64,000 nucleotides of DNA, taken from contig JASBSS010000013.1 in NCBI GenBank assembly GCA_030148805.1, positions 1-64,000 on the forward strand. The letters run 5' to 3'. Below, piece after piece: positions 4,221 through 49,104 of the stretch. How positions within the stretch are numbered: position 1 is the first letter of the stretch; each line of letters starts with the position of its first letter. The notes beneath the pieces are model-generated. The model did no database searches and was not told the DNA's origin. It saw only the letters and a program-made list of their open reading frames with translations. Position numbers and translations under genes: made by a program. The stretch is from Thiogranum sp. GTDB lineage: Bacteria; Pseudomonadota; Gammaproteobacteria; DSM-19610.

Positions 4221-4944
4221 ATGGACGATTCACGGCGTGGGACATCCCGGCTCGACGAACTGCTCGATATCATGGCGCGGCTGCGCGACCCCGAGCGCGG
4301 CTGTCCCTGGGATCTGCAACAGGATTTTTCCACCGTCGCGCCCTACACGCTGGAAGAAGCCTACGAGGTGGTCGACGCCATTGCACGAAACCAGGCGCGG
4401 GACTTGTGTGACGAGCTGGGCGATCTGCGGGAAAATGATCCGGCGCCACCCGCATGTGTTCGCCGGCGAACAGATCGCAGACGCGGCGCAGCAGGCCGCG
4501 GCGTGGGAGCGGCACAAGGCGGCCGAACGCGGCGCCCGGTCCAGCGCCGAGCACAGCGCATTGGAGGGCGTGCCATTGGCATTGCCGGCGCTTGTGCGGG
4601 CGCAGAAGCTGCAGCGCCGTGCCGCGCGGCAGGGCTTCGACTGGAAGCAGCGCCAGCAGGTGGTGGCCAAACTCGACGAGGAAATCGGGGAGCTGAAAAG
4701 CGCGCTGAGCGACGGCGAACCGCTGGCACGCGTACAGGAGGAGTTGGGCGACGTGCTTTTCAGCGCCGTGAACCTGGCCCGGTTTGTGGACGCCGACGCC
4801 GAGACTCTGCTGCGTTGCGCCAACGAGAAATTCAGCGCGCGTTTCCGCCGCGTCGAAGCCTTCGCCGCCGAACAGGGAAAGCCGCTGCCGGAGTGCTCGC
4901 TTGAACAGATGGAAGCCTGGTGGCAGCGGGCAAAGGATAGCTGA
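4221..4944 (+). pseudogene. mazG: mazG, nucleoside triphosphate pyrophosphohydrolase, broken by an internal out-of-frame deletion
   Basis: MazG hydrolyses (d)NTPs to monophosphates and pyrophosphate. Frame 1 from the ATG at 4221 gives a normal start (R-L-R-D-P-E-R-G-C-P-W-D, then E-E-A-Y-E-V-V-D-A) up to D-E-L-G-D-L at 4413-4427. The gene then continues in another frame as A-I-C-G-K-M-I-R-R-H-P-H-V-F through the second domain (E-E-I-G-E-L, E-E-L-G-D-V) to the stop at 4944. About 26 family residues between the two parts are absent. The junction falls on GCGATCTG (4420-4427), which reads as the end of one part and the start of the other, as expected from deletion between direct repeats. Unbroken translation is impossible. 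A restart at ATG 4435 could make only the second domain. Confidence 0.85.
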
Positions 4945-13581: not shown

Positions 13582-13893
13582 ATGTACGCAGTTATCGTGA
13601 CTGGCGGCAAACAGTACCGCGTCAGCCAGGGCGACAAGCTCCGGGTTGAAAAACTCGACGTCGCCGAAGGCGACAACATCGAACTCGATCAGGTGCTGAT
13701 GGTGGTCGACGGCGACGACATCAAAATCTGCGCGCCGGTCCTCGACGGTGGCAAGGTCATCGCCCAGGTCAAAGGCCACTGACGCGACGACAAGGTGGAG
13801 ATCATCAAATTCCGCCGCCGCAAGCATCATATGAAGCGCCAGGGTCATCGCCAGGCGTTCACGGAACTGGAAATCACGGGCATCAGTGCCTGA
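13582..13893 (+). pseudogene. rplU: rplU, ribosomal protein L21, with an in-frame TGA at codon 67
   Basis: The reading frame from ATG 13582 encodes L21 ([14 protein letters not shown]) for 66 residues and stops at TGA 13780-13782. The same frame continues without a break as [16 protein letters not shown] through E-I-T-G-I-S-A to the TGA at 13891-13893. With the internal TGA counted as a residue the product is 103 residues, exactly the family length. In E. coli L21 the position is a Gly (H-G-R-G). A single GGA to TGA change, a base-call error or readthrough could explain it. L21 binds 23S rRNA, and the lost 36 residues include much of the basic binding surface. Promoter and partner rpmA are intact. 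Confidence 0.85.
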
Positions 13894-13910: not shown

Positions 13911-14168
13911 ATGGCACATAAAAAAGCCGGTGGTAGTACGCGCAACGGGCGCGATTCGGAATCCAAACGTCTGGGCGTGAAAATCTACGGCGGCCAGGAA
14001 ATCCACGCCGGCGGTATCATCGTGCGCCAGCGCGGCACCCGCCTGCACGCCGGCGTTAACGTCGGCTGCGGACGCGACCACACCCTGTTCGCCAAGACCG
14101 ACGGTACCGTTCGCTTCGTCACCCGCGGTCCGAAAAGCCGCAAATTCGTGGACGTGGTTTCTTCCTGA
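13911..14168 (+). CDS. rpmA: 50S ribosomal protein L27
   Basis: An 85-residue protein with the conserved L27 start [16 protein letters not shown] and R-L-G-V-K-x-Y-G-G-Q. Its N terminus reaches toward the peptidyl transferase centre. It follows rplU by 17 bases with a GAGGTAAG ribosome site and ends just before a strong terminator. Confidence 0.97.
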
Positions 14169-14248: not shown

Positions 14249-16452
<2,204 letters not shown>

Positions 16453-19428: not shown

Positions 19429-22278
19429 GTGAGCAACTATAAAGACACCCTGAACCTGCCGCAGACCGATTTCCCCATGAAAGCCGGTCTGGCCAAGCGT
19501 GAGCCGGAGACGCTGAAATACTGGGACGACATCGGCCTGTATGGCAAGTTGCGCGAACTGGCGCGCGAACAGGATCGACCGAAATTCATCCTCCACGACG
19601 GACCGCCTTACGCCAACGGCGAAATCCACATCGGTCACGCGGTGAACAAGATCCTCAAGGACATTATCGTCAAGAGCAAGACGCTCGGCGGTTTCGACGC
19701 GCCCTCTGTGCCCGGCTGGGACTGCCACGGCCTGCCGCTCGAACTGAACGTGGAGAAGAAAGTCGGCAAAGTGGGGCAGAAGGTCGACGCCGCCGGCTTT
19801 CGCCGCAAGTGCCGCGACTACGCCGCCAGACAGGTGGACGGCCAGCGCCGGGATTTCATCCGCCTTGGGGTGTTCGGCGACTGGGCGCACCCGTATCTGA
19901 CCATGGATTACCGCTTCGAGGCGTATATCGTGCGCGCCCTGGGCCGTATCATCGCCAACGGCCACCTGCATAAAGGTTACAAGCCCGTACACTGGTGTAC
20001 CGATTGCGGTTCCGCGCTGGCCGAGGCCGAAGTCGAATACGAAGACAAGACCTCGCCGGCAATCGACGTGCGTTTCGGCGTGCTTGACGAAGCGGCCTTG
20101 CTGCAGCGCTGCGCGCCGGCCGCCGACGCCGGCACGGGGCCGATTTCGGTGGTCATCTGGACCACCACACCCTGGACGTTGCCGGCCAACCGCGCGGTGG
20201 CGCTGCACGCCGAGCTGGACTATGTGCTGGTACAGGTCGAACTGGGCCAGGGTCCGGAACGGTTGTTGCTCGCCGAGGCCCTGCTGGAGGCGACCATGCA
20301 GCGCTACGGCGGCGGGGACTATCGGGTGCTGGCCGGCTGCAAAGGCGCGGCGCTGGAACATCTGCGCCTCAGGCATCCGTTCTATGAGCGCGACGTGCCG
20401 CTGATTCTGGGCGAGCATGTGACCACCGAGGCCGGCACGGGGGCGGTGCACACCGCGCCCGGTCATGGTCAGGACGACTATCTGGTGGGACAGCGTTATC
20501 AGCTCGAGGTGGACAATCCGGTGGCCGGTAACGGCGTGTTCCTGGCCGGCACCGAACTGTTCGCCGGCAAGCACGTCTTCGCCGCCAACGACGCCGTGAT
20601 CGAGACGCTGCACCAGCGCGGCGCGCTGGTGCACAGTGCCGGCCTGCGTCACAGCTATCCGCACTGCTGGCGGCACAAGACGCCGATCATTTTCCGCGCC
20701 ACGCCGCAATGGTTCATCAGCATGGAACAGCGCGGCCTGCGGGCCGCCGCCCTGCAGGCTATCGGCGAAGTGCAATGGCTGCCGGGATGGGGCAAGGCGC
20801 GCATCGAGGGTATGGTCGCGGGACGGCCCGACTGGTGTATTTCGCGCCAGCGTACCTGGGGTGTGCCGATCGCACTGTTTGTGCATCGCGAAAGTGGAGA
20901 ACTGCACCCCGACAGCGCGCGTCTGATCGAGGAAATCGCCATGCGCATCGAGCGCCACGGCGTGGACGCCTGGTTCGACCTCGATGCCCAGGAGCTGTTG
21001 GGCGACGCTGCCGGCGACTACGAGAAAATCAATGACACGTTGGATGTCTGGTTCGATTCCGGTACCACCCATCACGCCGTGCTCGAGCGGCGCCCGGAGC
21101 TCGGTTTTCCCGCCGACCTTTATCTCGAAGGTTCCGACCAGCATCGCGGCTGGTTCCAGTCGTCGTTGCTGACCTCGGTGGCCATGCACGCGCGCGCGCC
21201 GTACCGGCAGGCGCTGACGCACGGGTTTACCGTCGACGCCAAGGGTCAGAAAATGTCCAAGTCCAAGGGCAACGTGGTGGCGCCGCAAAAAGTCGTCAAC
21301 AGCCTGGGCGCCGATATTCTGCGCCTGTGGGTGGCCGCGACCGACTATCGCGCCGAGATCACCGTCTCGGATGAAATCCTCAAGCGCGCCGCCGACGCCT
21401 ATCGGCGCATGCGCAATACCGCCCGTTTTCTGCTGGCCAATCTGGTCGGTTTCGACCCGGTGGAGCATGCGCTGGCGCCCGAGGCGATGCTGGTGCTGGA
21501 CCGCTGGGTGGTGGCGCGCACCGCGGCCTTGCAGCAGGAAATCGTCGCCGCTTACGCCGACTACGAGTTTCACCATATCTACCAGAAGGTGCATAATTTC
21601 TGCGCCAACGATCTGGGCGGGTTCTACCTGGACGTCATCAAGGACCGCCAGTACACCACCCAGGCCGACAGCGTGGCGCGGCGCTCGACCCAGACGGCGA
21701 TGTATTTTATCGCCGAGGCGCTGGTGCGCTGGCTGGCGCCGATATTGAGTTTTACCGCCGAGGAGATCTGGCGCCACCTGCCGGGCAAGCGCGAGGAGAG
21801 CGTGTTTCTGGAGACCTGGTTCGAACTGCCGCAGATGTTTCTGCCCGACGAGCCCGAGGCGCAACGCTTCGGTCCGGCATTCTGGGAAGACGTGCTGGCG
21901 GTGCGCGATCTAGTGAAAAAAGAGGCGGAGAAAGTCCGCGTCGCCGGCGACATCGGCTCGTCGCTGGACGCCGAGATCGATTTGTACTGCGACGCGCAGT
22001 GGCTGGAAAAACTCTCGCGTCTGGAGGACGAGCTGCGCTTCGTGCTGATCACTTCTTATGCGCGGGTGCATCCCGCGCAGGAGCGGCCCGATGACGCCTT
22101 GGTGCTGGCGCTGCGCGACAGCACCATCGCGATCCGGGTCGAAGCCTCGGCGCATCCGAAATGTGTTCGTTGCTGGCATCATCGCGAGGACGTCGGCGCG
22201 AGTGCGCAACATCCCGAACTTTGCGGGCGCTGTGTCGCCAATGTCGCCGGTGACGGCGAGCGGCGCCGGTTCGCCTGA
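19429..22278 (+). CDS. ileS: Isoleucyl-tRNA synthetase
   Basis: A 949-residue class I synthetase (E. coli 938). The HIGH-type motif is H-I-G-H within [11 protein letters not shown], and K-M-S-K-S is present at about residue 606. The editing domain lies between, and the C-terminal zinc finger has C-V-R-C and C-G-R-C pairs (about 905-935). The start is GTG at 19429, giving [13 protein letters not shown]. The reading frame is intact. Confidence 0.97.
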
Positions 22279-24223: not shown

Positions 24224-25138
24224 TCAAAACGTCGTCGGCGTCAGCGGCGGTATTTTTTCCATCACCTCGAAGGCGTCATGGCGCACGTGATTGTGGCGCA
24301 TCTGTTCGCGGACCCCGCTTTCGCTGAGCTTTCCCTGTTGCAGGCATTCCTTTAGCAGGGCGAAAAACAAGCGCTCCTGCAGCGGGTCCGGGTGCGGCCG
24401 GTAGTGCCCCAGAAACGCGTATTCGCCGAACCACTTGCGACGCAGTTTCATCACCCAGGCCAGCGGTGGGAAATAGGGAAACTTCTCCCGCGGACGGTGA
24501 TCGATGGGCAAACCGGTTTTCCACGGCTGCGTTTTGCGCTTGGTGGTATGCAGCATGCGCGTGGCCGTGCTCAATTTGTCAAAGTCGTTCCATTCGTTTT
24601 CAAACAGACCAATAGTTTCGGCGGGCTCGGTTTTCAGGCAAATCCAGCGCATGTAGTCGCGCCTGCCGGTGAACATCTGGTTGAACTGTTCCTCCACCTG
24701 CCAGTGTCTCAGCCGGGCGTTGTCCAGCAGCATGACGCTGCTGGCCATGCAGCGGTCGAATCTCCCTTTGCTGCCGGTGCGCGCCCGACAGAGAATGGCT
24801 TTGCCCCCCATGTCGCGCGAGAGCAGTTCCCAGACATCGGCCACGGCGAAGACGTCCGGATCGATCACCAGGGCGCGGCCCTGCTAGTCAATCAGCCGCG
24901 GCGGCATGAAGCGCAGCGGCGTGAAGGACTGCAGGTCGTCGTTCAGCCAGGGGCGGCGCATGCCGTCGCGCAGGTAGAGCTGTCCCTCGCGGGCGGCGAA
25001 GAAGGCATAGTCTTTGAGCTGAATGATTCTGACGTCGAACTGGTCGTTGTGGCGCGAGTAGCGCCGCAGCGCGTGCTCGGCCACAATGGCGCCGACTATC
25101 TGCTTGTGGTTGGTGTGAATAAAAACGCAAGGCTTCAT
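24224..25138 (-). pseudogene. Glycosyltransferase-like protein interrupted by an in-frame TAG
   Basis: Two segments lie in one reading frame. Residues 1-84 from ATG 25138 (M-K-P-C-V-F-I-H-T-N-H-K-Q) stop at TAG 24886-24884. The frame then continues as Q-G-R-A-L-V-I-D-P-D-V-F-A-V to TGA 24224, giving about 304 residues if the TAG is read. A single TAT or TAC (Tyr) to TAG change would explain it. The V-I-D-P-D-V-F segment looks like the D-x-D nucleotide-sugar site of GT-A glycosyltransferases, and a Trp/Tyr-rich C-terminal half follows. I do not recognise the exact family. It sits between ispH and a DUF302 gene. Confidence 0.65.
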
Positions 25139-47916: not shown

Positions 47917-48753
47917 TCAATCGAAGCGCAGGGAGAAGTCCACCGCGCGCACGTGCTTGGTCAGCGCGCCCACCGAGATGTAGTCGACGCCGGTCTTGGC
48001 GTACTCGCGGAGGTTGTCCAGGTTGATGTTGCCCGAGGCTTCCAGTTCGGCGCGCCCGTCGGTCAGGGCGACGGCTTCTCGCAACTGCTCGAGCACGAAG
48101 TTGTCGAGCAGCACGCGGTCGGCGCCGGCGGCCAGCGCCTGGGCCAGTTGATCGAGGTCCTCCACCTCGATCTCGACCATCAGCTCGGGTTGTTGGCGGC
48201 GCGCGGCCTCCACGGCGGCCTTGATCGAGCCGCAGGCGGCGATGTGGTTCTCCTTGATCAGAAAGGCCTCGAACAGCCCCATGCGGTGGTTGTGGCAGCC
48301 GCCGCAGCGCACGGCGTATTTCTGCGCGTGGCGCAGGCCGGGGAGGGTCTTGCGGGTGTCCAGGATGCGGGTCTTGAGGCCCTCGACCTTGCGCGCGTAG
48401 CGCTGTGCCTGGGTGGCGGTGCCCGAGAGGGTCTGGAGAAAGTTCAGCGCGGTGCGCTCGCCGCTGAGCAGCGCGCGCGCCGGGCCCTTGAGGGTGCACA
48501 CCACCTGGTGCGGCGCGATGGCCTCGCCGTCGGCGCTGTACCAGCGGATGTCGATGCGCTCGTCGAGGTGGCGGAACACGGCGTCGAACCAGTTGCGCCC
48601 GCACAGCACGGCGTTCTCGCGGGTGTAGACGCTGGCTTTCCAGATGCGCTCGGCCGGCACCAGGGCGGCGCTGATGTCGCCGCTGCCCAGGTCCTCGGCC
48701 AGGGCCAGGCGCACGGCCTCGTCGATATGCGCTTCCAGGGCTTCGAGCAGCAT
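47917..48753 (-). CDS. nadC: Nicotinate-nucleotide pyrophosphorylase
   Basis: A 278-residue quinolinate phosphoribosyltransferase for NAD synthesis. Conserved blocks are [45 protein letters not shown] and S-V-G-A-L-T-K-H. It is intact and directly follows the FKBP gene. Confidence 0.96.
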
Positions 48754-49104
48754 CTATTCCGACAGTTCCAGCAGCTCGATCTCGAACACCAGGGTGGCGT
48801 TGGGGGGGATGACGCCGCCGGCGCCGCGCTCGCCGTAGGCCAGCTCGGGTGGCACGGTGAGCTTGCGCACGCCGCCGACCTGCATGCCCTGCACGCCCTC
48901 GTCCCAACCGGGGATGACGTAGCCGCACTGCACGGGGAAGCTGAACGGATCGTCGCGGTCCTTGCTGGAGTCGAACTTGGTGCCGTCGGTCAGCCACCCG
49001 GTGTAGTGCACGATGGCGGTCTGGCCGCGGCCGGTGCACACGGGGCCGTCGCCGGCGGTGAGGTCCTCGTAGACGAGGCCGCTGTCAGTGGTCGTGGTTG
49101 TCAT
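48754..49104 (-). CDS. FKBP-type peptidyl-prolyl isomerase
   Basis: A 116-residue stand-alone FKBP domain: V-H-Y-T-G-W-L-T-D-G-T-K-F-D-S-S, V-I-P-G-W-D-E-G-V-Q-G-M and P-E-L-A-Y-G-E-R-G. There is no signal peptide, so it is cytoplasmic. I chose ATG 49104, overlapping the end of the AGCS gene by four bases. Confidence 0.9.
   Translation of the reverse strand: MTTTTTDSGLVYEDLTAGDGPVCTGRGQTAIVHYTGWLTDGTKFDSSKDRDDPFSFPVQCGYVIPGWDEGVQGMQVGGVRKLTVPPELAYGERGAGGVIPPNATLVFEIELLELSE

What the first reader, a model, noticed from the sequence alone, without database searches (positions are those of the whole stretch)
13780..13782. In-frame TGA at a Gly position in the ribosomal protein L21 gene
The rplU frame stops at codon 67, yet the following 36 codons continue the L21 sequence in the same frame to exactly the family length of 103. 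In E. coli L21 the position is Gly (H-G-R-G); GGA to TGA is one change. Promoter, ribosome site and rpmA are normal. A truncated L21 would lose most of its basic C-terminal rRNA-binding part. The options are base-call error, an L21-truncated lineage, a second rplU copy elsewhere, or readthrough/recoding. TGA serves as the ordinary stop of many genes here, so general reassignment is unlikely.
Basis: partly seen in the sequence, partly recalled or inferred. Interest (0 to 1): 0.65.

Follow-up and report, generated by a model that had tools for sequence, protein, structure and literature searches.

The report
Stray stop codon in ribosomal gene
The gene for ribosomal protein L21 in this genome really carries a stop codon two thirds of the way along, but the evidence points to a sequence fault or a very recent mutation rather than a new way of reading the genetic code.

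Summary
rplU (13582-13893, +) has an in-frame TGA at codon 67 (13780-13782), and the same frame continues as full-length L21. It is the only rplU found in the 3.78-Mb, 38-contig assembly. All 13 congeners in which the gene was found have Gly there. I found no support for recoding: TGA ends 155 of 293 long ORFs sampled, none of the 43 tRNA places has a UCA anticodon, no tRNA-Sec match reaches the cut-off, downstream RNA folding is ordinary. The downstream third has stayed under protein-level constraint, so the stop is very young, absent from the cells, or read through. Five other residues are private within the genus; four lie with the stop in codons 50-69, one at an invariant Gly. I read this as most likely a local fault in the assembled sequence, next a genuine recent nonsense mutation. 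The same contig has two other broken genes: mazG (80-nt deletion) and an unknown gene with a TAG. Raw reads would decide. Interest is low.

The parts
13582..13893 (+). rplU, ribosomal protein bL21, 103 codons plus stop if codon 67 is read through
13780..13782 (+). in-frame TGA, codon 67, at a Gly position
13729..13788 (+). codons 50-69: cluster of states private to this genome within its genus (C50, I60, G65, stop67, D69)
   Evidence: 5 of 6 private changes within 20 codons, chance 0.02 if uniform
13795..13797 (+). first in-frame start-like codon (GTG) after the TGA; no Shine-Dalgarno seen by eye at normal spacing
13911..14168 (+). rpmA (bL27), open frame of 85 aa; name by gene order and recalled L27 sequence
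14291..15319 (+). obgE, open frame of 342 aa; name by gene order and recalled knowledge
4222..4944 (+). mazG broken by an 80-nt deletion near 4423 relative to four congeners
   Evidence: MazG domain matched in the downstream piece
24224..25138 (-). gene without Pfam match, split by TAG at 24884-24886, where two congener paralogs have Tyr

Best explanation
The TGA is a local fault of the assembled sequence: one or more wrong bases (poor local consensus or mixed strains) in codons 50-69 of an otherwise normal, single-copy rplU. The living cells make ordinary 103-residue L21. Shown: the stop, the single assembled copy, the intact and constrained downstream frame, the lack of signs of recoding, the absence of the stop in the relatives seen, and the cluster of private changes. 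Inferred: that the change is absent from the cells.
For: Only rplU in the assembly, in its usual place before rpmA and obgE. 13 of 13 congeners Gly. Codons 68-103 differ from four near congeners (G004, G011, G001, G003, my choice) by 11-16 bases but only 2-3 residues; the lowest of 2000 neutral simulations for each was 3-6 residues, always above the observed number for that congener. Private changes of this gene are 6 nonsynonymous (stop included) and 0 synonymous, against 28 and 54 in the 13 congeners together (Fisher P 0.0025). 5 of the 6 fall in 20 codons (P 0.02 if uniform), and one hits a Gly invariant in 110 of 110 relatives. In a dead or relaxed gene changes should be spread; codons 70-103 have no private change. 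The assembly is incomplete (no PF00562 match).
Against: No reads could be seen. Base quality looks good elsewhere: no internal stop in 67 ABC_tran matches or in 21 ACR_tran matches of this genome, and the frameshift search over congener-aligned parts of this contig flagged only mazG. The 80-nt mazG deletion is not a base miscall, so real gene loss may occur here; a few ACR_tran matches are short fragments that may be remnants. The excess of private changes at invariant positions against four neighbour genes is weak (3 of 70 against 8 of 693, P 0.07). The synonymous/nonsynonymous contrast is soft because codon states are shared by saturation, and two congeners (G003, G007) have as many private replacements, 6 each, though spread along the gene.
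Confidence: 0.5

Rival explanations
1. A genuine, very recent nonsense mutation: the population makes a 66-residue L21 fragment or none, and tolerates a weaker large subunit.
For: Two other genes of the same contig are broken, mazG by an 80-nt deletion that cannot be a miscall and an unknown gene by a TAG. Private replacements at conserved L21 positions 50, 60 and 69 could mean relaxed constraint. [quoted passage not shown] coli and B. subtilis are not essential when individually deleted (PMC9035817, passages seen); that L21 is among them is recalled, not read.
Against: None of 52 relatives with a match has a stop in rplU. Codons 70-103 show no private change. Loss of most of the basic C-terminal part should be costly (inference).
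Confidence: 0.33
2. Readthrough: the TGA is real and a near-cognate tRNA inserts an amino acid often enough to supply L21.
For: Downstream frame intact and constrained. The next base is C; UGAC is recalled as a weak termination context in E. coli.
Against: 33 of 155 ordinary TGA ends in the sample are also followed by C. No UCA anticodon at the 43 tRNA places, no tRNA-Sec match over the cut-off, no unusual RNA fold downstream (z -0.94), the stop is in none of the relatives seen. L21 is needed in ribosome-level amounts (recalled).
Confidence: 0.09
3. Split L21: residues 1-66 and a separately started C-terminal piece (GTG at 13795, or ATG at 13831) assemble together.
For: The GTG lies 12 bases after the TGA, close enough for termination-reinitiation; changes at 65 and 69 flank the break.
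Against: No Shine-Dalgarno seen at normal spacing before GTG or ATG (by eye). No split gene among 52 relatives. The one other disrupted rplU seen in the class sample, G084, is a frameshift near codon 53 whose TGA follows from the shift and lies elsewhere.
Confidence: 0.03
4. A second, intact rplU lies in the part of the genome that was not assembled or binned.
Against: The broken copy sits in the usual rplU-rpmA-obgE order, and each of the 13 congeners with a match has one copy.
Confidence: 0.05

Closest known systems
Ribosomal protein bL21 (Pfam PF00829)
   Same: Full length, whole profile matched, usual neighbour rpmA
   Different: Stop at codon 67; residues private within the genus at 32, 50, 60, 65, 69
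Nonsense pseudogene or miscall in a draft genome
   Same: One in-frame stop, frame intact on both sides, seen in one genome only
   Different: Falls in a highly conserved ribosomal gene
Selenocysteine or other UGA recoding
   Same: In-frame TGA with a conserved continuation
   Different: No tRNA-Sec match over the cut-off, no notable downstream fold, relatives have Gly (2 of 110 Val) at the position and not Cys, stop not seen in relatives

Membership tests
bL21 (PF00829) | match over the full profile | tested here: met
   1-99 of 99, 125.1 bits with X at codon 67
bL21 (PF00829) | uninterrupted reading frame | tested here: not met
   TGA at codon 67
Selenoprotein | tRNA-Sec in the genome | tested here: not met
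   13 RF01852 matches, none over the cut-off; the two best are an ordinary tRNA-Ser and tRNA-Leu; assembly incomplete
Selenoprotein | SECIS-like hairpin just after UGA | tested here: inconclusive
   fold z-score -0.94, 38 of 200 shuffles fold as well; no SECIS model was run
UGA reassignment | UGA no longer used as stop | tested here: not met
   155 of 293 long ORFs end in TGA in 448,542 bases sampled
UGA reassignment | tRNA with UCA anticodon | tested here: not met
   none at the 43 RF00005 places; assembly incomplete
Conserved readthrough gene | stop kept in related species | tested here: not met
   0 of 52 relatives with a match
Sequence artefact | reads disagree with the assembled base | not testable with these tools
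   no reads available

The most novel reading that the evidence does not exclude
The TGA is real and L21 is still made, by efficient UGA readthrough or as two separately translated halves, so this lineage runs on a recoded or split core ribosomal protein; the replacements at 50, 60, 65 and 69 would then be adaptation to it.
Probability: 0.1. Interest if true: 0.75.

Novelty: not a real feature. Interest (0 to 1): 0.13.

Why it matters
If the stop were real and L21 still made, it would be a striking case of recoding or splitting in a core ribosomal protein. As the evidence stands it matters mainly as a caution: a single stop in one draft genome, seen in none of its relatives, is better checked on reads than read as biology.

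Tried and rejected
General UGA reassignment: rejected. Selenocysteine: rejected on present evidence. Genus-wide truncation of L21: rejected. A second assembled copy: rejected. A coding-potential scan for stops inside coding frames was of little use: its best hit, TAG at 48754-48756, is an ordinary junction (an FKBP-like gene ends, a nadC-like gene starts at the next base, names recalled); its strict filter kept 4 places and lost rplU itself; the other 3 places and the rest of the unfiltered list, apart from the TAG at 24886, were not followed up one by one. The first list of stops inside congener alignments was mostly antisense shadow frames. After keeping the best-scoring frame, 16 stops were listed; I accepted 13780 and 24886 as breaks within genes and set the other 14 aside by eye as gene ends, upstream extensions or weak fringe alignments. 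In one search four 'private' positions of ispB that are alignment ends were dropped before the count used, and six genes compared with only two congeners were not counted.

Literature: searches; only the listed rows (4 to 15 of up to 1,947 papers) were seen, and none of those titles or abstract starts is about a stop in bacterial rplU or loss of L21. Passages were seen of PMC10931766, PMC7535068 and PMC9035817. Two papers on dispensable ribosomal proteins are not held. Class sample: one search lists only part of its 355 matches; I then asked for 160 of the genomes it had not listed. At least 20 of the sample were not seen.

Full report
What is there. The window carries rplU at 13582-13893 on the + strand, followed by rpmA (13911-14168) and obgE (14291-15319) (the two neighbour names rest on order and recalled sequence). 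Codon 67 is TGA (13780-13782), and the frame goes on to codon 103 and a second TGA. The read-through product matches Pfam Ribosomal_L21p end to end and the best solved bL21 chain over 1-103. A search of the whole genome (3,775,139 bases, 38 contigs, 95.87% complete, 4.45% contamination) found this one rplU and no other.

Relatives. Of 56 genomes searched (this one and 55 relatives), 53 have a match; in the 52 relatives with a match none has an internal stop. Three of 16 congeners have no match. Codon 67 is Gly in 13 of 13 congeners with the gene; in 110 distinct relative sequences it is Gly in 108 and Val in 2. The nearest named loci by this gene are MAGs titled Thiogranum, Thiohalobacter or Gammaproteobacteria (85-86% identity). 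In a class sample of 369 genomes, 355 have a match. Neither the rows shown there nor two sets of 80 further genomes from it have another whole rplU with a stop; G084 has the gene in two pieces. Read directly, G084 has a frameshift near codon 53 and its TGA follows from the shift. G284 has a partial match beginning at base 14 of its contig. At least 20 genomes of the sample were not seen.

Is the downstream part still a protein? Codons 68-103 differ from four near congeners by 11-16 bases but 2-3 residues; random change of the same size gives 8-11 residues on average and 3-6 at the least in 2000 trials each. The downstream third was therefore under protein-level constraint for nearly all the time since these species parted. 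This leaves three possibilities: the stop is very young, it is not in the cells, or it is read through (or translated apart).

Local oddities. Residues N32, C50, I60, G65 and D69 occur in none of 13 congeners; C50 replaces a Gly kept in 110 of 110 relatives, and I60 is found in none of the 110. With the stop, five of these six private changes lie in codons 50-69; a uniform scatter does so with probability 0.02. Private changes here are six nonsynonymous (stop counted) and no synonymous; in the 13 congeners together 28 and 54 (P 0.0025). Codon states are shared through saturation, so that contrast is soft; and two congeners (G003, G007) also have six private replacements each, spread out. The four neighbour genes compared over 9-14 taxa show no such cluster; the excess at invariant positions against them is only suggestive (3 of 70 against 8 of 693, P 0.07). 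Six more genes were compared with two congeners only and say little.

Recoding tests. TGA ends 155 of 293 long ORFs in 448,542 bases of this genome; 33 of the 155 are followed by C, the base that follows the rplU stop. RF00005 gave 43 places, 42 over the cut-off; all were typed and none has a UCA anticodon. tRNA-Sec gave 13 matches, none over the cut-off. No tRNA-Trp was among those typed and the RpoB domain PF00562 has no match; contig C2 ends within 221 bases of a Thr-Gly-Tyr tRNA cluster, so I infer an assembly gap at the tuf/rpo region. The RNA after the stop folds no better than shuffles (z -0.94). The start-like codons after it, GTG 13795 and ATG 13831, show no Shine-Dalgarno at normal spacing by eye.

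How reliable is the sequence? There is no internal stop in 67 ABC_tran matches or 21 ACR_tran matches of this genome, although some of the latter are short fragments. In the first 130 kb of the contig, about 91 kb aligned with congener genes held three breaks that I accept: mazG with an 80-nt out-of-frame deletion, rplU, and an unknown gene with TAG where two congener paralogs have Tyr. The mazG deletion cannot be a base miscall, so gene loss, misassembly or strain mixing is possible here. Stops are rare but not unique to rplU.

Verdict. I put a local fault of the assembled sequence first (0.5), a genuine young nonsense mutation second (0.33), then readthrough (0.09), a missing second copy (0.05) and a split protein (0.03). 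The first two cannot be separated without reads. A paper states that at least half of ribosomal proteins are not essential when individually deleted in E. coli and B. subtilis (PMC9035817, passages seen), so a real stop might be survivable; that L21 is one of these is recalled and was not confirmed in a paper I could open.

Noticed in passing
window 4222-4944 (+): mazG carries an 80-nt out-of-frame deletion relative to four congeners; both halves are otherwise conserved.
   Followed up: partly
window 24224-25138 (-): Gene without Pfam match, 68-69% identical to two paralogs in a congener, split by TAG at 24884-24886.
   Followed up: partly
window 48753-48756 (-): An FKBP-like gene ends in TAG and a nadC-like gene starts at the very next base in the same frame; ordinary (names recalled).
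   Followed up: yes
window 19429-22278 (+): ileS (name by recalled gene order) shows 98 private residues here against 31 and 57 in the two congeners compared, more than its neighbours do; cause unknown.
   Followed up: no
   Followed up: partly
G000:C35:10536-12583 and G000:C38:382238-382441: Short ACR_tran fragments in small open frames, possible remnants of a broken transporter gene.
   Followed up: no
G084:C1:2601421-2601722 (in L222): Another class member has rplU in two overlapping frames, a frameshift near codon 53 in a one-contig assembly.
   Followed up: yes
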